Shown one piece after another: positions 768 through 62,700 of a stretch of DNA of 64,000 bases. Origin of the DNA: Mugil cephalus (Eukaryota > Chordata > Actinopteri > Mugiliformes > Mugilidae); NCBI RefSeq assembly GCF_022458985.1, contig NC_061777.1, forward strand, positions 13,171,668-13,235,667. The letters are read 5' to 3'. A program made the translations under genes and the position numbers. The first letter of the stretch is position 1. Each line of letters opens with the position of its first letter. The notes beneath the pieces were generated by a model, which was not told the origin of the DNA, did no database searches, and was given only the letters and a program-made list of their open reading frames with translations.

Positions 768-17210
<16,443 letters not shown>

Positions 17211-35600: not shown

Positions 35601-38600
35601 TGTCCGTGTCTGCACACATACCGCAGAATTGCGTCCGACCACTTTACGGTTCAGTAAAGTCCATTACGCAACAAAGTTGCTTCAACAGCCACTTAGTATA
35701 CAAGCAAGGGGGTCTTCTGTCACGTGGAGATGTACGCCTCCATTACTGCCCACAGGGCATTTCAGGCTGGGTGTGATTGTGCTTCTTCAGACTGTGGTTG
35801 GGGGTTGGGATTTGTAGACAACTGGGAAAAAGGGGGGAGGGAGGCATGGATGGACATATCTGGGAAGGGGGGCGGGGGGGCTGACGTGGCGTGCAACTAG
35901 ATTGTCTTGTTCCACTTTGCAAATGCACGTGTCGCGTTCTTGCCCACTGTTCTTTCTACAGTGCAAAAATATCTGCCCCATTTTTCGCAAAAGAGGTGCA
36001 TACCTGGGAGGACAGTGCAGGACTTTACTGGACAAGTAAGTCCTCCGCTAAAATCATTTGCAACCACAGCGAGGTTAGACCACACACTGTAAGTCGTTAA
36101 TGTGCAGTGGTTCATGTGCAGCAGTGGGAGAGCTTGACCACAGGCTCCTGCAGGGCAAAACGCAAATGCACAGGGGTAGAAAGAGGATGAGTGCAAATAA
36201 AGGTCAAGATAGTTCATATTTATACAGTTAGCCGGTCATGCAAGTGAACTTTACGTCCGTTATCTTCAGAAAATAATGCAAAATGCTTCCTCATAACTCT
36301 CCTGGTTATTCATGTTATCTTGTCCTCCTGCTTTCAGGTGACATCCCAGCGGATGCAGGGGTTGTTACTGCTGGTCTTCGCCAAATACTATCATCTTCCC
36401 TTCCTCCGCGGAGTCCAGACTGAGACCACCCGCACGGGCCTGGGGGGTTACTGGGTGAGACGGCTACTGACACCTTTCTGTTATCTTTAGTGTTATGGAA
36501 ACTTCACACATGGACACAGAGCGACACAAAGAATGTGAACCACATCTCTGTTTTGAATGCTGGAACTCATAACCCACAGAACATTTATAAGAACATTTGC
36601 ATGGGAACGCTGCATCATATCTTGAAATTTGTTAGTCAAATGCAGCTTTATCCAGTTTTATGAAAATAAAGAGACAGATGTAGGTAGCTCTCAGCCAGCT
36701 GCTCAGTAGTGTTTGGAATGCACATTTCTTTTATGGATTTAACTCGTGGGAAAAGTGGATAAAACTTCAACAATAAGCAACTATTCCATATTAATTTTGC
36801 CATCAAGTACAAGCTTGTTTTTTCAGAACAGTTTGTTGCCATGTTACTACAAGACTGTAAAGATAGAACTAAGATCCCAGTGGATGACTGTCTGTAGGAA
36901 CTCAAATATCACGACTTTGTGCCAGTTTTATGCTGAAACATCTTTTTAGTGGGTCAGAGTAGTTAAAAGATAGTGGAATAAAGCTTGCACCCCCCATTGT
37001 GCACTTAACTGCTAACATTAAATATTAATATTGTTTCTCTGTGGTCCTTAATTAGTAAACTTCCTGTTTCTCATGGCAGGGGCAGACATTTAGTGTAGAT
37101 AATATACTTACTAATTACAGCCCTCAGACACTCTCGTCATGACTGACAGTATTAATTTAATCCATTAATTTAGTTTGGCCTACAGGGAAACGTCCGATAG
37201 CAGCACACAAACAGGTTATTCCTCTTTCCCTCTTTCCACCAGTGACTGCCATCTTCTTGTCAATGTTGTTCAACTTCTACTTGTCCATGTTACAGGGTAA
37301 CAAAGGTGGAGTGAGCGCCCGCATGTCGGTGTTCGGTCACACCGTCTGCTTTCTTAACTGCCACCTGCCGGCTCACATGGAAAACTCGGATCAGCGCATG
37401 GAGGACTTTGAGAGCATCCTGCAGCAGCAGCAGTTCGAGGGCCAGGCTGCCACTGGGGTTCTTGACCATGAGTAAGTCAGCGTGAAAGAACACATGGTCG
37501 ACACACACACACACACACAAACACACATTTGGACTCTTTACATCTGCTCATGGTTTCTGAGGGAAATTATATCACAATCTCAATGAAAAACGTATTTGGA
37601 AGTATGAAATTCCTGCTTTTTTTCAGTGTTGTGTTCTGGTTTGGGGATCTGAATTTCCGCATCGATGACCTGGACATGCAGGTTGTAAAAACAGCCATTG
37701 ATAACAGCAAGTTTTCCATGTTGCTGGAAAAAGATCAGGTAAAGAAATAAACATTCATTTAACAAGACTCTTCATAAATCTATTTGCAAATGTTCGCAAA
37801 GGTTTTAGATACACTGTGTACGTTACATCATCCGTGTTCATGGCAACTAACTGATAGAGTAATATTTTTAGACAAGTAGCACACTTGACAGTAGTGCACT
37901 CTGCATACTGAAATCCACTCCAAACTTATTTCCCAAAACATCTTTATATTAGAAGTTTAATTTTACACCAGAATGCTCATGAAGACTTGCTATTTAATGA
38001 GCTGAAGTTATGTTATAAAGTCAGGCAATAGAGGTCTGGTGAAGTATGCACTGTGTAGTTAATGCCACTAGAGGGCAGTAAAGAAACGCATATTAAAAGA
38101 GCTGTCAGTAATTGTATATTATTTCTCATTTTTGTAGCTGAACATGGCCAAAGACAGTGAGACGGTGTTGGAAGGATTCCAAGAGGGGCCTCTGAAGTTC
38201 CCTCCAACATACAAGTTTGACGTGGGAACAGATACATACGACACAAGGTCGGTGATGCCGGGGGTGCTATTATGAATTCTAGGCCACTGACCAGATAGTT
38301 CATCCTCTGAAAGGTTCTCACTCGCCTGAAGGGGCCATGTTTTTTCCTACATTTATTGGCTTTAAAAAAGATGATATAATTTTTTTTTTTGTCTTCCATT
38401 TCCCCGTTTTCTGGCAACATTTTAGTGGAAAGAAACGGAAACCAGCTTGGACCGACCGGATCCTGTGGCGTCTCAGAGCCACCGCACCTGCCGCTCTGAA
38501 CGCAGGGAAGCGTGGCTCCATTTCAGGGCTGACCAGCGGAACCAAGGTGACGCAGCACTCCTACCGAAGTCACATGGAGTACACCGTCAGTGACCACAAA

Positions 38601-45148: not shown

Positions 45149-45151
45149 ATG

Positions 45152-48100
45152 ATGAACGGACAGATGAATGGTTTCCATAACTCCCTCATTGACGAGGACT
45201 GCTTCTTGTTCACGTCAGAGTCGGTCGGAGAAGGACATCCCGGTAAGATCCAACATGCCGGCCCCCTTGTCTTTATCCTGCAGCCGCTTGTCTGATGAAG
45301 TGTATCGCATTTAGAAATTTACGCCATTCTCTAACATCTCTGTTAATTCTGCGTTTAATTTGTGTGGGGGGGGAATTGGTATAAATGTAATTAAAACGTT
45401 AACGGCCTTTAACGAGGCCGGTATCAAGAGCACGCGCTGCAAGCTAATGTTAGCTAGCTAACGTTAATCTTTAGTGAATAGACCGAGATCTCGTTTGTCT
45501 CAACGAGCGACAACTAACATGTCGTAGTCCGTGTCACTCGTTAACTGTTGATGTTAAATTATATATTATTGTCCCGCTCTGATTAAAAATTTCCCGTTTT
45601 TGTGTAAATGCTTTATCATCCAGTGCTATTCTTGAAGCACGCGGTGGACAGTGGTAACGCGATCCTCCGTACAGAACGTGTAAGGCCGTTTTAATAGCAT
45701 CCCTTAGATCTTTGTTTAGCGTTTATACAGTATATCGCGCACTCTTTCCGGTGCCCGTGTACTTGGCGCGCTCTCTTCTCCACCACATGTGTCCGTTACC
45801 AGCTGAAATGGCGTCTGCTGAGCCACTCCCACTGAATATGAACCGGGCCGGGGGCGCTAACCTGCCTCAGCTGATGCTCAGACCCGGTGTTCTGGTTTGC
45901 GTCCGTTCGTGGCTCACGGTGTCATTTTGTTTTTTTTTTTTTTTTTTTTTTTGTTTTTTTTGCAGACAAGATCTGCGATCAGATTAGCGATGCAGTCCTA
46001 GACGCCCATCTGAAGCAGGATCCCGATGCCAAAGTTGCTTGTGGTAAGGACACTTCTTGTTTCTGCTTGCTCATATTACCCCAAATCATATGGTGACGTG
46101 GACATGTAAAATGTTATTTATTTTTCTTATTTTCTTGCCTCGTGCAGAGACTGTTGCCAAGACTGGGATGATCCTGTTGGCAGGCGAGGTGACATCTCGC
46201 GCCACTGTCGACTACCAGAAAGTTGTCCGTGACACCATCCGCCAAATTGGATACGACGACTCCTCCAAAGGTGTGGTCACCACGTTCTGGTTTGTGCTTA
46301 AATACTGAATTGCTTGGGAGTTCTCTTTGGTGTTAATCAGCTGTGCTCTGTCTTCTGCACAGGCTTCGACTATAAGACCTGCAATGTCCTTGTGGCCTTG
46401 GAGCAGCAGTCTCCTGATATTGCCCAGGGCGTTCATGTCGACCGCAATGAGGAGGACATTGGAGCAGGTGACCAGGTCAGTAGCGGTGCGCCTGGAGTGA
46501 AATTACAAATGGCTGACCTTTTCTTTTTTTCACGTTTTTAATCTCTGCCTTAATATATCTTGCTCTGCAGGGTTTGATGTTTGGATATGCCACCGATGAG
46601 ACTGAGGAATGCATGCCTCTCACAATTGTCCTTGCCCACAAGCTGAATGCTAAGATGGCTGAACTGCGGCGCAATGGCACCCTCCCATGGCTCCGGCCAG
46701 ACTCAAAGACGCAGGTAAAGCCGTTACATCATTTCCCACGCTACACACACACACATTTTGCTTTTATCAAGAGATGCCGGAGACGTAGAAAATTAACCGC
46801 CTTACCTCCTCACAGGTTACTGTGCAGTACCGCCAGGACCGTGGTGCTATGCTCCCAGTGCGCGTGCACACGATTGTCGTCTCCGTTCAGCACGATGAGG
46901 ATATTTGCCTAGAGGAGATGAGAGATGCTCTGAAGGACAAAGTCATCAAGGCAGTTGTTCCCTGCATCTACTTGGACGATGACACCATCTACCACCTGCA
47001 GCCCAGTGGGCGTTTTGTCATCGGGGGCCCACAGGTAAATGTCTCACGGTGTGGCTTTCAGGAACTGCATACCATGTGAGTAACTTAACCCGCTTAACCT
47101 CTGTAATTCTATTACAGGGTGATGCCGGCCTCACTGGACGTAAAATCATTGTGGACACTTACGGAGGCTGGGGAGCCCATGGTGGTGGAGCCTTCTCTGG
47201 GAAGGACTACACAAAGGTGGACCGCTCTGCTGCTTACGCTGCACGCTGGGTGGCAAAGTCTCTGGTGAAGGCTGAGCTCTGCAAGAGAGTCTTGGTCCAG
47301 GTGAGTGGTAGCATCAAATTCACTAGTCTTCATTTTAGACAGAGGGGCTACAAGAGGTTCCTGCCTTAAGTTTTCTGTGTTAGATACTGGATATAATACA
47401 TCTATGTGTGCTGTATTAGGTGTCCTATGCCATTGGAGTTGCCCACCCCCTCTCCATTTCTATCTTCCACTATGGGACCTCCCACAAGAGTGAGAGGGAG
47501 CTGCTTGACATTGTGAAGAAGAACTTTGATCTCCGTCCAGGAGTCATTGTCAGGTAATGTATGACTCCTGAAGCCACCTGCTACTCAATGAATCGGCAGC
47601 TCCTGGCTCCTTCGTCTTTCCCGTCCCATATTTTTTTTTTCTTATTCAGTTGCCAGTATTGTTTTTGTTTTTTTGTATGTGTTTGATTTTTTTTTTCAAT
47701 GTGTTAACTGTATACTACAGGGTAATAGCTAGCACCATCTTTACCTTTGTGAGTCAATGCTACAGTTTGTGACATCAATTCTTTATACGTGTACATATAC
47801 AAACAGTGGTGGCAAAGGTTGTTTTTATTAGGGCAGACATTACTATAATCTGGCTAATGAAATCACATCATAGCCTAGTTAGATAAGCGCTGCTCTGTAA
47901 ATTGGATAAGTGCGGTTTCCATCTGCAAGCTGCAGTGTCCTGTTTGGTTGGCATGGTAAGTGTCAGAGCATCACGTTTCCCACTCCACCAGCCAGTATCA
48001 ATATTCATTTATTTACGGGGGATGGCCTTTGACACTCCCACTGGCTAATGTGAGCGCTAACACTTGTGTGAATATGAATGCGTGCATCTGAGTTCACTGG

Positions 48101-48241
48101 GTTTGACTGCTGCTAAATGTGTTGATTATGTATTCCAGGGAGCTGGATCTGAAGAAACCCTTGTATCAGAGGACAGCAGCCTATGGCCACTTTGGCCGAG
48201 ACTCCTTCCCATGGGAGGTGCCCAAAAAACTCAAATACTAA
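45152..48241 (+). CDS. mat2a: S-adenosylmethionine synthase, MAT2A type
   Basis: Makes S-adenosylmethionine from methionine and ATP in the cytosol and nucleus. Exons: 45152-45242, 45966-46043, 46148-46270, 46363-46475, 46571-46714, 46816-47034, 47118-47300, 47420-47553 and 48139-48241. This gives 395 aa, the length of human MAT2A, with all phases continuous. Key segments are GEGHPDKICDQ (26-36; His29 in the ATP site), [12 protein letters not shown] (131-142), the glycine-rich GGGAFSGKD (278-286) followed by [10 protein letters not shown], and a C-terminus ending VPKKLKY. A second ATG directly upstream at 45149 would add one residue; the start at 45152 matches human MNGQ. Teleosts often have two mat2a copies and I cannot say which this is. 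Intron 8 (47554-48138) is the equivalent of the mammalian regulated retained intron. Confidence 0.97.
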
Positions 48242-48261
48242 ACCTGTTAAGCTTTTCCCCC

Positions 48262-48294
48262 CAGGCCTGTTGGTGTATACTACAGAGAAGCCTC
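48262..48294 (+). promoter_or_regulatory. METTL16-type hairpin 1 of mat2a
   Basis: TACAGAGAA at 48281-48289, flanked by AGGC (about 48263-48266) and GCCT (48290-48293), which can pair. It lies about 40 nt after the stop codon, the position of mammalian hp1, which controls retention of the last intron. Confidence 0.88.
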
Positions 48295-49021
48295 CAGGGT
48301 TCAGGGGGTGAAATGCCCTTGTCTCTCTAATATTGCTATCATTTACCATGACTCCCTTCCTCACTCCTCCTCCTCCCTCCTTTGTCTTGTTACTGTTTTC
48401 TGCTGGTTGCAGTATCATGCTGGGTCCTTAGAGGCATGCCTCGGAAACTTGATGTTTGAAAGAACAGGATCGGTTCAATGAACTTAAGCCCCATAGTGCT
48501 TCATGTTGTCCTATATTTGAGGTTCCCCTGCTTCTTGTTAGACACAGAGTAGCTGCGTTCAGTTGTTTTCCCTTGGGCATTCCACACTCGCTGATGTTGT
48601 CTGTCTTCTATTCAGTATCATGGCAGTAGCATATTAGGCATTGTACGATAGTCCTCTTTAATTTACTGGTGCTACTGGTGTTAGTCTCAATGTAGAAGCA
48701 TAATTTGATAGTTTGAGGGTCCTCTGATCCAGCATTGTCCTCCAGAAAATTTTAGCTTTTTTTTTTTTAAACATTCCTCCCGTGTCAGTGTGGTACAGTA
48801 ATTCCTCCACCAGGTGTTACTTTTTTTTTTTCTTTGAGTTAGCTGCTGTGTCCCCTCGTCTTTGTGGAGGATGCTAGAATGGCACAATTAAAATTCAAGG
48901 GTTGTTGCTGTTTTCACTAAAAATGCTATGCATTGCAGGCTATGGGGCTAGCCAAATCATAATTCAAGCTCTCAAATGAGCGTAACGCCTCAGATGCCTC
49001 TGCAGACCGTTGCTGTATTCT

Positions 49022-49043
49022 GACGTAATACAGAAAAGTCAGA
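49022..49043 (+). promoter_or_regulatory. METTL16-type hairpin 2 of mat2a
   Basis: TACAGAAAA at 49029-49037 within a loop closed by CTGAC and GTCAG, a perfect 5-bp stem. Confidence 0.85.
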
Positions 49044-49218
49044 AGCTGCTATGTCACTGCTCTGGTCTGCAGAGGTATTGGTTCTACTTGACGGCCGTGG
49101 AAATTTAAATTGTTATGCATTGAAAATCAATTTTTAAATTAATCCTTTTTAAATGTAGTTTCACTTTTTTATGGTTTTGAGTGACTAAAGGCCCTATTAC
49201 TCCTTAAGTTTATCGACT

Positions 49219-49244
49219 GCAGGTGTAGCTACAGAGAAACCTGT
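49219..49244 (+). promoter_or_regulatory. METTL16-type hairpin 3 of mat2a
   Basis: TACAGAGAA at 49230-49238, closed by CAGG (49220-49223) and CCTG (49240-49243). Confidence 0.85.
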
Positions 49245-49335
49245 CTGTCTTTATTCTTAAAGGGGGTGTGTTCTTTACCGCAGAGTCTTACTGGCTAGGA
49301 ATCAGACTTCAACACTATTTATTTGTTCTCTGAAT

Positions 49336-49361
49336 CTCGGCGTGGATACAGAGAAGCCGAG
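49336..49361 (+). promoter_or_regulatory. METTL16-type hairpin 4 of mat2a
   Basis: TACAGAGAA at 49347-49355, closed by CTCGG and CCGAG, a perfect 5-bp stem. Confidence 0.85.
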
Positions 49362-49428
49362 TTTTCAGAAGGCAGCTTTAAATCTTGAATTCCTTTTGAC
49401 TTGATCTTTCAGTGTTTTGCTTGAGGCC

Positions 49429-49455
49429 CCAGAGTGTTGTACAGAAAAGCTTTGG
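49429..49455 (+). promoter_or_regulatory. METTL16-type hairpin 5 of mat2a
   Basis: TACAGAAAA at 49440-49448, closed by CCAGAG and CTTTGG, a 6-bp stem with one G-U pair. Confidence 0.8.
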
Positions 49456-49635
49456 TTGGCCTCAACAAGAAGTTGTCACTGGCTACTGTTAATGGCTATT
49501 TTACAACCTTTTTTTTTTACTTTTGGACTGCAGATCTTATTTTTCAGGTGGATTAGTTTTAAGATCCCTATTTAAAAAAAAGTCTGGTGCAATTCTAAGG
49601 CTTTGGCCTATCCCCAAAAATGTGATGGCAACATT

Positions 49636-49661
49636 TGGTTGGTGTGGTACAGAGAAACCAG
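49636..49661 (+). promoter_or_regulatory. METTL16-type hairpin 6 of mat2a
   Basis: TACAGAGAA at 49648-49656. TGGTT upstream can pair with AACCA overlapping the motif end. Confidence 0.78.
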
Positions 49662-49898
49662 CCTTGTTTACATAACCATCACATGTGTGGGATACAGTTG
49701 ATACAGTTTTGTTCCCCTTTACCTCCCAGAGTTCATCCTGTTGGCTACAGTTAAGTGTAAGAGTGCCTTTTCTATTTCCTCTACTCCCTTTTTGCTTTTC
49801 TCCCCTCCCACATACATGCGTTCAACTTCCAGAGGAACAAGTAGCTTATACTGTAATATGCTTCATGTCTAGGCTGGGTAGTGTCCTAAATGCTCTGT

Positions 49899-59797: not shown

Positions 59798-62700
59798 ATG
59801 GTTTCTCTTAAGCGAGAAAGAGAGGTCGATGTGGACGATGACGACAATGAAGACGAAGGTAGGTGTAATTTCTTATAACGTTTGTCTTGCGTTTGATTAG
59901 CTTGTAGCTATGTAGCAATAGCCGCTGGTGCGTTTGAATTTGTTACCGGGTTGCTCCAGTTAACACACAGGCGGGGACAGGCTGTTCCATGACTGTGTCG
60001 TTAAAACATATGCACCGCTCGTCCAAAACACTCCGTGTATGAAAATCAGCACCCTTCTACAACCTTTAGGCTAGGTTAGCTAGCATGTTTAGCTAGTTTG
60101 CGTTTAAACAATTGTCCACAATTTGTTTTGACCGTGTTTGTTATGACTCACTTTTTGTTGCAGTGGCAACCAAAATAGGACGGGGACGTGTAGTAGAAGA
60201 CAGAAGAAGCCGGCACTGTCCTTATCTTGACACCATTAACAGGCAAGAGTTACATGTCCATGGCTAATAACAGTGCTAAATGCTAGTTAGCCGCATCAAA
60301 CACAACTAATTTCCAGTTTTGTTGATTTTTCAGGAGCGTGCTGGACTTTGACTTTGAGAAACTCTGCTCCATCTCTCTCTCCCACATCAATGTCTACGCC
60401 TGCCTTATATGTGGAAAATACTTTCAAGGTAGGCAGATGACCTCACGTGTTAACCAGGCATCAAACTCCTTGTTGTACTTTGACTAATTTGGCGTTTCCT
60501 TGTTTCTTGCAGGTAGAGGTCTGAAGTCTCACGCGTACACTCACAGTGTTCAGTTTACACATCATGTGTTCCTCAATCTGCACACACTCAAGTTTTACTG
60601 TCTGCCAGACAACTATGAGATCATTGACTCATCACTAGAAGACATAACAGTAAGTAAAGCAATGCAATACAGAATTCATATTATTATATTAAATTAAACT
60701 GAGTTTACTGCCAGACTGACCTTAATATGTAGTGATATCTGTGCTTATAAAATATTACATCACCACTTATAACACAGTACACTAATTTGTTGCAACTTCT
60801 ATTTCTGCAGTACGTGTTGAAGCCAACTTTCACCAAGCAGCACATTTCAGGACTGGACAAGCAGGGTAAACTGTACCGAGCCTACGATGGTACAACCTAC
60901 TTGCCGGGGATCGTAGGGCTCAACAACATCAAAGCCAATGACTATGCCAATGTTGTGTTACAGGTATGGCTGAGTAATTATATGTCTTATCTGGGCTTTA
61001 GGACAATTATTTCAGACAATATCAACCATTCCACATTTACCTCCTCCTCTCAGGCGTTTTCCAATGTGCCACCTTTGCGAAACTACTTCCTGGAGGAGGA
61101 GAACTACAGAGGGATCCGCAGGCCACCTGGGGACATCATGTTTCTCTTGGTGCAGAGGTTCGGCGAACTGATGCGCAAGCTTTGGAATCCGCGAAACTTC
61201 AAGGCTCACGTGTCCCCGCATGAGATGCTGCAGGCTGTGGTGCTGTGCAGCAAGAAGAACTTCCAAATCACCAAGCAAGGTGATCCCCTGGATTATCTAA
61301 ATTATACGTAACTGTTGCTAAGCAGGCTTTTAAAACATGCTGCCTTTTGGAGCCTAATTCTGTTCCTGTTCTGCAGGAGATGCTGTGGACTTCATGACAT
61401 GGTTCTTGAACGCTCTGCATGGTGCACTTGGAGGCACAAAGAAAAAGCCATGTGAGTGGAAGAATAATCAGAGGGAGTTTGACTCCTAATTGTTAAGTTA
61501 TAACATATGCAAATAAAGCTTTTAACTGTGATACCAAAGCAGAATCTCTGTTACTTTCCTGAATTTAAAATGTGTTGGTTTTTTGGAAAAATGCATGTTA
61601 AACTCTGTCCTTAATGCTGTTTCTGCCCTCAGCGATCATCACAAAAGCATTTCAAGGCTCTATGCGGATATTCTCCAAGAAACTTCCTCACCCAGATTTA
61701 GTAAGTTTCCTGCTTATGTTTTAAAATCATTCATGAAGAATATTTAATGTATCTTGGCTTTACAAATTAATAATTGTTAAATAATTGGACCAAGGTTTTT
61801 GTGATAAACAGTTATAAAATGCTTCTTTTTATTTGGAAGGATTTATTTTGTCACATATTTGAACTAAAGCTGACGCACCCTCCTCTCTAACGTTTATGTT
61901 TTTCAAATATTTCTAGCCACCAGAGGAAAAAGAGGCTTTGCTTGTGACAGAGGAGTACCAGGAGCAGATGTCCGAGTCCACTTTCCTGTTTCTGACCCTC
62001 GACCTCCCAACTGCTCCACTGTACAAGGATGAGAAGGAGCAGCTTATCATCCCGCAGGTCCCTCTCTTCAACATTCTGGGCAAGTTCAATGGCAGCACAG
62101 AGAAGGTACTGATTCGTCCACACCGCGCCGACTTTGATGAACAAAAGCAAAACAGATACCAGTGTTGCAATTGTTAATATCTAAATGCTGTTATTATTAC
62201 TACGGACAAAGACTTTACTGTATCATTTTCAGATACAAACAATCTTAGAACAAAGTGTCCAATTTCTATATACATCCTCTCTATTTAAATTTAGTTTTAT
62301 ATAGAATTATAAAATAGATTTAGTCTATTAACTGTAAATAACAATTCAACAGTGACAATATACTACTGCGCTTTCCGGTCTCGTTCATATTCAGGAATAC
62401 AAAACCTACAAAGAGAATTTTCTCAAAAGGTTCCAGTTGACCAAACTGCCTCCGTACCTCATCTTTTGCATCAAAAGATTCACCAAGAACAACTTCTTTG
62501 TGGAAAAGAACCCCACCATTGTCAACTTCCCTATCACGTAAGTGCTGTTCCTGTTCTATAGGACAAGGGGTGTAGCCTCAACATAAGTTGATGGGAGTAA
62601 TTAATAACGTTATTTATTGTTTTATTATGCTCACTTGTGTGTATGTGCATTTTGTTCTTGATATAAGAATCGACTTGTCAGTTATGTCACTTTGTATTCA

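What the first reader, a model, noticed from the sequence alone, without database searches (positions are those of the whole stretch)
48262..49661. Six METTL16-type UACAGARAA hairpins conserved in the mat2a 3' UTR
Six nonamers (48281, 49029, 49230, 49347, 49440, 49648) each sit in a short stem, four with UACAGAGAA and two with UACAGAAAA. Mammalian MAT2A mRNA is known to carry six such hairpins. METTL16 methylates these (m6A), and the first one couples S-adenosylmethionine level to splicing of the last intron while the others affect mRNA stability. Number, spacing and the placement of hairpin 1 right after the stop codon all match, so the feedback circuit very likely operates in this animal.
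Basis: partly seen in the sequence, partly recalled or inferred. Interest (0 to 1): 0.8.

Follow-up and report, generated by a model that had tools for sequence, protein, structure and literature searches.

The report
Fish mat2a METTL16 hairpins, ordinary orthologs
A fish gene for making the cell's methyl donor carries the same six RNA hairpins known from the mammalian gene, as expected, but a second copy of the gene in this fish keeps three of them and lacks the one that controls splicing.

Summary
Six UACAGARAA nonamers lie in the 3' UTR of an intact nine-exon mat2a gene. Each sits in a GU-N(2-4)-nonamer core with a stem; the window's two other nonamers do not. Rfam already holds these elements as MAT2A_A to F. 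All six match in order, though only A and D pass Rfam's cut-offs. This is the fish ortholog of a known vertebrate element.

Two 4-mers that mammalian splicing of this intron needs (UGUA at the acceptor, UGUU after the stop) are present at matching places. That the circuit "very likely operates" is inference. METTL16 could not be searched for (tool busy), and the one fish test seen (zebrafish mettl16 mutants, 3 dpf, passages) reports no mat2a splicing or expression defect.

New here: the genome shows five MAT loci. The closest relative, on C19 (90% identical protein), keeps orthologs of hairpins B, C and F but lacks hairpin 1. Its last intron is 84 nt against 585 nt, with a more pyrimidine-rich acceptor and no UGUA there. 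This looks like a natural separation of splicing arm from decay arm. Its function is untested.

The parts
45149..48241 (+). mat2a coding region, nine exons (45149-45242, 45966-46043, 46148-46270, 46363-46475, 46571-46714, 46816-47034, 47118-47300, 47420-47553, 48139-48241), 396 aa
   Evidence: open joined frame with GT-AG introns; all three S-AdoMet_synt Pfam domains; best PDB match isoform type-2 (MAT2A) 841.9 bits against 768.9 for type-1 (MAT1A)
47554..48138 (+). intron 8 (last intron), 585 nt; by position the homolog of the mammalian detained intron
   Evidence: CAG|GTAATG ... TTCCAG|GG; acceptor has 10 of 17 pyrimidines at -20 to -4, tied with intron 7 for lowest of the eight introns. Detention itself not tested
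48129..48132 (+). UGUA at -10 to -7 of the intron 8 acceptor: candidate CFIm25 site
   Evidence: sequence; human site is 9-12 nt upstream of this acceptor (PMC8139829). Weak by itself: 47990-48300 holds three UGUA and three UGUU
48245..48248 (+). UGUU just after the stop codon: candidate CFIm25 site, 112 nt from the UGUA
   Evidence: sequence; human pair is 114 nt apart (PMC8139829). Chosen over a second UGUU at 48268 by its spacing
48251..48316 (+). hairpin 1 (A), nonamer 48281-48289 UACAGAGAA
   Evidence: Rfam MAT2A_A 60.1 bits, cut-off 40; the one match found in the genome, with 63 of 142,022 first-look candidates scored; inner stem 0.85-0.94 and outer 0.88-0.92 pairing probability around a 2x2 internal loop
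49002..49070 (+). hairpin 2 (B), nonamer 49029-49037 UACAGAAAA
   Evidence: Rfam MAT2A_B 21.8 bits, below cut-off 45, E 0.73; 7-bp stem; R1 34.5 bits (R1 was built from the six)
49218..49245 (+). hairpin 3 (C), nonamer 49230-49238 UACAGAGAA
   Evidence: Rfam MAT2A_C 27.7 bits, below cut-off 47; 6-bp stem; R1 31.2 bits
49329..49369 (+). hairpin 4 (D), nonamer 49347-49355 UACAGAGAA
   Evidence: Rfam MAT2A_D 39.0 bits, cut-off 32; 6-bp inner stem
49416..49469 (+). hairpin 5 (E), nonamer 49440-49448 UACAGAAAA
   Evidence: Rfam MAT2A_E 25.3 bits, below cut-off 46; 7-bp stem; folding z-score -4.03 for 49420-49465
49619..49685 (+). hairpin 6 (F), nonamer 49648-49656 UACAGAGAA
   Evidence: Rfam MAT2A_F 45.7 bits, below cut-off 51; 7-bp stem

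Best explanation
These are the six METTL16 hairpins of a fish mat2a mRNA, orthologous one to one with Rfam MAT2A_A to F. By analogy with mammals, METTL16 binds hairpin 1 and methylates the fourth base of the nonamer when SAM is plentiful. When SAM is scarce it dwells on hairpin 1 and, through CFIm at the intron 8 UGUA and the post-stop UGUU, promotes removal of intron 8. Methylation of hairpins 2-6 speeds decay of the mRNA. Shown here: gene, hairpins, predicted stems, order, intron and motifs. Inferred from mammals: binding, methylation, intron detention, decay. Not shown: that the circuit runs in this animal. A second mat2a-like gene on C19 keeps orthologs of hairpins B, C and F. It lacks hairpin 1 (A), D and E, the long last intron and the UGUA at the acceptor; its nearest UGUU lies 54 nt after the stop. 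Most likely it answers SAM, if at all, through mRNA decay only.
For: Six of six UTR nonamers in the GU-linker-nonamer-stem context and far above chance. Rfam A-F in order. Each of the seven pairs of the common stem has a double change among the six hairpins, 90.5% of 42 cells paired; four of five measures were reached by 0 of 500 shuffles, the fifth by 1. Against the Rfam consensus, 21 of 108 pairs changed on both sides and stayed paired, 19 on one side, 54 the same, 5 broken, 9 gapped. Six hits of 29.0-35.2 bits with a model built from these hairpins, next best in the window 14.6. Pairing probabilities mostly above 0.85 in flanks up to 150 nt. UGUA and UGUU at mammalian-like places. C19 gene: hairpins of 34.5, 33.3 and 27.6 bits, next best 9.7 in L010:3400-7500; similarity of B and F with flanks and of the C core; short intron; no hairpin 1. 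L011-L013 hold no nonamer in 9,901 bases each.
Against: Four of six hairpins score below Rfam's cut-offs, and B alone (E 0.73) would not stand out from chance. Models cross-match: C scores higher on hairpin D than on hairpin C. Hairpin 1 is not more stable than shuffles, z -0.25 in the 89-nt context, and shorter pieces fold differently. Zebrafish mettl16 mutants at 3 dpf show no discernible mat2a splicing or expression change (PMC11099167). METTL16 was not tested in this genome. No RNA data. The covariation is among hairpins of one gene, with a structure read from them; that is on alignments fitted to the models. UGUA and UGUU are common 4-mers.
Confidence: 0.8

Rival explanations
1. The hairpins are conserved and methylated, but in fish they act mainly on mRNA stability or only in some tissues or stages. 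Intron 8 detention by hairpin 1 is weak or absent in embryos.
For: Zebrafish mettl16 mutants at 3 dpf: no discernible mat2a splicing change and no decline of mat2a mRNA; the legend names mat2aa for splicing, mat2aa and mat2ab for expression (PMC11099167, passages). The C19 gene keeps three decay-type hairpins without hairpin 1.
Against: Hairpin 1 has the highest Rfam score of the six here (60.1 bits), and the pyrimidine-poor acceptor and both 4-mers are present, which is not expected if the splicing arm were idle.
Confidence: 0.25
2. The C19 gene is not a post-duplication partner that lost hairpin 1. It is an older MAT2A-type duplicate, or one that never had the splicing arm.
For: The tree leaves window gene, C19 gene and the MAT2A of the PDB as an unresolved trio. 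Synteny could not be tested (tool busy).
Against: Rfam's MAT2A_A matches the window gene over its full length at 60.1 bits, so hairpin 1 is probably older than the fish lineage. B and F are shared with flanks and C in its core. Protein identity of 90.0% over 361 aa is the highest of the ten pairs compared.
Confidence: 0.2
3. The nonamers are chance or a local repeat.
For: Two nonamers lie elsewhere in the window without a stem, so the motif alone is not rare.
Against: Shuffles of the UTR give at most 1 where 6 are seen. The stems differ in sequence but pair. Order and family identity match Rfam.
Confidence: 0.005

Closest known systems
MAT2A 3' UTR stem loops A-F (Rfam RF02260-RF02265; hp1-hp6 of the METTL16 literature)
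   Same: number, order, nonamer, GU-linker-nonamer core, position of hairpin 1 right after the stop codon, gene identity
   Different: hairpin B carries UACAGAAAA where the Rfam consensus has UACAGAGAA; four of six score below curated cut-offs; hairpin 1 stem has a U-G pair in place of C-G next to the loop
[quoted passage not shown]
   Same: UGUA near the last-intron acceptor and UGUU after the stop, 112 nt apart here and 114 in human; UGUU as the paper states for vertebrates other than zebrafish, which has UGUA there
   Different: UGUA lies at -10 to -7 here, in human 9-12 nt upstream; binding not tested
C. elegans METT-10 site on the sams 3' splice site (PMC8208822, passages)
   Same: a UACAGAAAC site in a stem that regulates a SAM synthetase
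   Different: that site is at the intron 2/exon 3 acceptor; here intron 2 ends gtgcag|AGA without the motif, so this is the vertebrate layout

Membership tests
Rfam MAT2A_A-F / METTL16 hairpins of MAT2A | gene is a MAT2A-type SAM synthetase | tested here: met
Rfam MAT2A_A-F / METTL16 hairpins of MAT2A | UACAGARAA nonamer with GU and a 2-4 nt linker in a paired stem, six times | tested here: met
   6 of 6 UTR nonamers; 0 of 2 others in the window
Rfam MAT2A_A-F / METTL16 hairpins of MAT2A | covariance-model match in the order A to F | tested here: met
   six of six in order at E up to 1 in a 5.5-kb search; B only at E 0.73
Rfam MAT2A_A-F / METTL16 hairpins of MAT2A | score above each family's curated cut-off | tested here: inconclusive
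   2 of 6 (A, D) pass; B, C, E, F are below
Rfam MAT2A_A-F / METTL16 hairpins of MAT2A | stem covariation | tested here: met
   among the six hairpins and against the Rfam consensus; not across fishes
METTL16-MAT2A SAM feedback circuit | METTL16 with C-terminal vertebrate-conserved regions in the genome | not tested
   search for PF05971 in the genome did not complete
METTL16-MAT2A SAM feedback circuit | m6A at the fourth base and SAM-dependent intron 8 splicing and decay | not testable with these tools
   needs RNA; zebrafish mutant result is negative for splicing and expression (PMC11099167)
CFIm25-dependent last-intron splicing | UGUA near the acceptor and UGUU between stop and hairpin 1 | tested here: met
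   common 4-mers, so presence is weak evidence

The most novel reading that the evidence does not exclude
After duplication of mat2a in this fish lineage the SAM feedback was split. The window gene kept the whole device: long last intron with a pyrimidine-poor acceptor and UGUA, the post-stop UGUU, hairpin 1 and five decay hairpins. The C19 gene lost the splicing arm (hairpin 1, long intron, UGUA at the acceptor) but kept three METTL16 hairpins, and so is a decay-only SAM sensor. The two arms of the METTL16 circuit would then be separable modules in nature, and one animal would hold both versions side by side.
Probability: 0.45. Interest if true: 0.55.

Novelty: new member of a known kind. Interest (0 to 1): 0.38.

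Why it matters
The window confirms that the cis parts of a known vertebrate regulatory element are complete in this fish, with the two CFIm25-type 4-mers in place. The pair of mat2a genes is the useful part: one has the parts of both arms of the METTL16 circuit, the other only decay-type hairpins. That is a ready-made comparison for asking how much of SAM homeostasis runs through splicing and how much through mRNA decay.

Tried and rejected
Chance origin of the nonamers: rejected. The two other nonamers in the window, 16808-16816 (-) and 25279 (+), as further hairpins: rejected, no stem. Taking the UGUU at 48268 as the CFIm25 site: set aside for 48245, which fits the human spacing. The invertebrate 3' splice-site mechanism: rejected, intron 2 acceptor lacks the motif. 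Folding of short pieces as evidence for hairpin 1: misleading, it folds otherwise in 33 and 49 nt; the longer context gives the Rfam shape. Literature: the original papers that I looked up by DOI (Parker 2011, Pendleton 2017) are not held, so they are cited through later papers. The listings of searches name no mat2a paralog without hairpin 1. Most of these listings are capped (for example 15 of 187 papers, 10 of 2,481); I saw titles, starts of abstracts and, in six papers, passages. Subscription papers are mostly absent.

Not achieved: METTL16 in the genome, C19 exon 1, gene neighbours of the C19 locus, a genome-wide search with the hairpin model, any comparison with other fishes.

Weak spots: the L012 row takes its exon-1 piece from a place far downstream (9716-9760), surely a chance match, and the L011 row lacks 30 residues of exon 6; both rows went into the tree as they were. 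An earlier count said that no UGUA or UGUU lies near the C19 stop codon; one search shows one UGUU 54 nt after it, and this report is right.

Full report
What is there. The window lies at C8:13171668-13235667 of a 634.8-Mb assembly in 24 contigs; a teleost is my inference. A nine-exon gene at 45149-48241 encodes 396 aa with all three SAM-synthetase domains. Its best solved relative is SAM synthetase isoform type-2 (MAT2A), 841.9 bits, ahead of type-1 (MAT1A) at 768.9.

In the 1,684-nt 3' UTR six are found, where 5,000 shuffles gave at most one each. Six of the window's eight nonamers fit GU, a linker of 2-4 nt, the nonamer and a stem of at least three contiguous pairs; the two outside mat2a do not. 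Hairpin 1 has three inner pairs, a 2x2 internal loop and an outer stem. In flanks of 15-150 nt the stem pairs form with probability mostly above 0.85; the lowest are 0.69 for the outer pair of B and 0.76 for D with 150-nt flanks. Left out of this are positions that do not pair: the internal loop of A and the seventh position of C and D. The acceptor adenosine is unpaired at 0.71-1.00.

Rfam already knows these elements. In a 5.5-kb search MAT2A_A, B, C, D, E and F match in that order, B only at E 0.73. At Rfam's own cut-offs only A and D pass. The C model scores better on the D hairpin (37.6) than on the C hairpin (27.7), so the C assignment leans on order. For the A family one match was found in the genome, with 63 of 142,022 first-look candidates scored.

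Structure. On an alignment of the six core hairpins, 90.5% of 42 cells pair, each of the seven pairs has a double change, and sliding the partners by one to three columns drops pairing to 30-45%. This is covariation among hairpins of one gene with a structure read from them. Against the Rfam consensus, over six alignments (C over its core only) and 108 pairs, 54 are the same, 19 changed on one side, 21 on both sides, 5 broken and 9 gapped; those alignments are fitted to the models. Thermodynamics alone is mixed: B, D and E fold better than shuffles (z -2.4, -2.8, -4.0), while A, C and F do not clearly (z 0.4, -1.5, -0.8) (A also -0.25).

Difference from the consensus. Hairpin B has UACAGAAAA where the Rfam consensus has UACAGAGAA; the C19 copy of B has UACAGAGAA, so the change is probably recent in the window gene. 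A review says the same change in human hp5 enhances methylation in vitro (PMC7927073, passage).

Splicing arm. In human cells removal of the detained MAT2A intron needs a UGUA 9-12 nt upstream of the acceptor and a UGUU between stop codon and hp1, 114 nt apart; the UGUU is said to be conserved in vertebrates except zebrafish, which has UGUA (PMC8139829, passages). The window has UGUA at 48129-48132 and UGUU at 48245-48248, 112 nt apart. These are common 4-mers: 47990-48300 holds three UGUA and three UGUU. The acceptor has 10 of 17 pyrimidines, tied with intron 7 for lowest of the gene's eight introns. A UGUA also overlaps hairpin C (49224), as the human one overlaps hp3.

Does the circuit run in fish? 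In mammals METTL16 on hp1 promotes splicing when SAM is low, and methylation of hp2-6 destabilises the mRNA (PMC7927073, PMC8139829, PMC9778287, passages). Methionine-depleted fish were not mentioned in the passages I saw. METTL16 could not be searched for in this genome.

A second mat2a-like gene. The SAM-synthetase C-terminal domain is found at five loci, 14 matches in all: the window, C19 near 12.148 Mb (L010), C13 (L011), C19 near 2.83 Mb (L012) and C16 (L013). Protein identities to the window gene are 90.0% (361 aa), 83.9% (329), 74.3% (373, with one short piece that is surely a chance match) and 81.3% (391). L010 scores higher with MAT2A than with MAT1A, 739.7 against 694.1 bits; L013 is marginally nearer MAT1A, 737.1 against 734.6. 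In a seven-row tree L011, L013 and MAT1A group (93/99), while window, L010 and MAT2A are unresolved.

Of the four other loci, each read over 9,901 bases, only L010 has hairpins: 5163-5189, 5373-5400 and 6415-6441 with 33.3, 27.6 and 34.5 bits, next best 9.7. L011-L013 have no nonamer on either strand. The three align with B, C and F, with flanks for B and F and in the core for C, and their stems form. The rest of the device differs. No nonamer within two mismatches lies in the 400 nt after the C19 stop codon, and D and E are missing. The last intron is 84 nt and its acceptor has 13 of 17 pyrimidines. From the start of intron 8 to 150 nt past the stop there is no UGUA, and one UGUU, 54 nt after the stop. 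Exons 2-9 of the C19 gene match without an internal stop in the aligned exon parts; exon 1 was not found in the stretch read.

Reading. The window feature is the expected fish ortholog of a known element. Since hairpin 1 exists in the Rfam family and in the window gene, loss from the C19 gene is simpler than gain; that the two genes are partners of the teleost duplication is not shown. A decay-only second gene is my most novel reading; no RNA evidence bears on it yet.

Noticed in passing
L010:4385-6441 (G000 C19, about 12.149-12.151 Mb): Second mat2a-like gene with hairpins B, C and F but no hairpin 1 and an 84-nt last intron.
   Followed up: yes
window 49013-49019 with 49027-49033: Hairpin B could also form an alternative 7-bp stem CUGUAUU/AAUACAG (read by eye) that would bury part of the nonamer; the METTL16-type stem still has about 0.89 probability in flanks of 30 nt or more.
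   Followed up: partly
window 60751-61311: Open frame that matches USP39 (tri-snRNP-associated protein 2, E 7e-72); a further piece in 62576-62860 matches the same UCH domain. From recall USP39 is also a neighbour of human MAT2A.
   Followed up: partly
window 37161-37750: Two open-frame pieces match Exo_endo_phos2, the second below the curated cut-off; the first was sent with five wrong leading residues.
   Followed up: no
L012 (G000 C19, about 2.83 Mb): A divergent SAM-synthetase gene, about 74% identical to mat2a, on the longest branch of the tree.
   Followed up: no
L010:239-310: A tRNA gene by Rfam, 56.9 bits, upstream of the C19 gene's exon 2.
   Followed up: no
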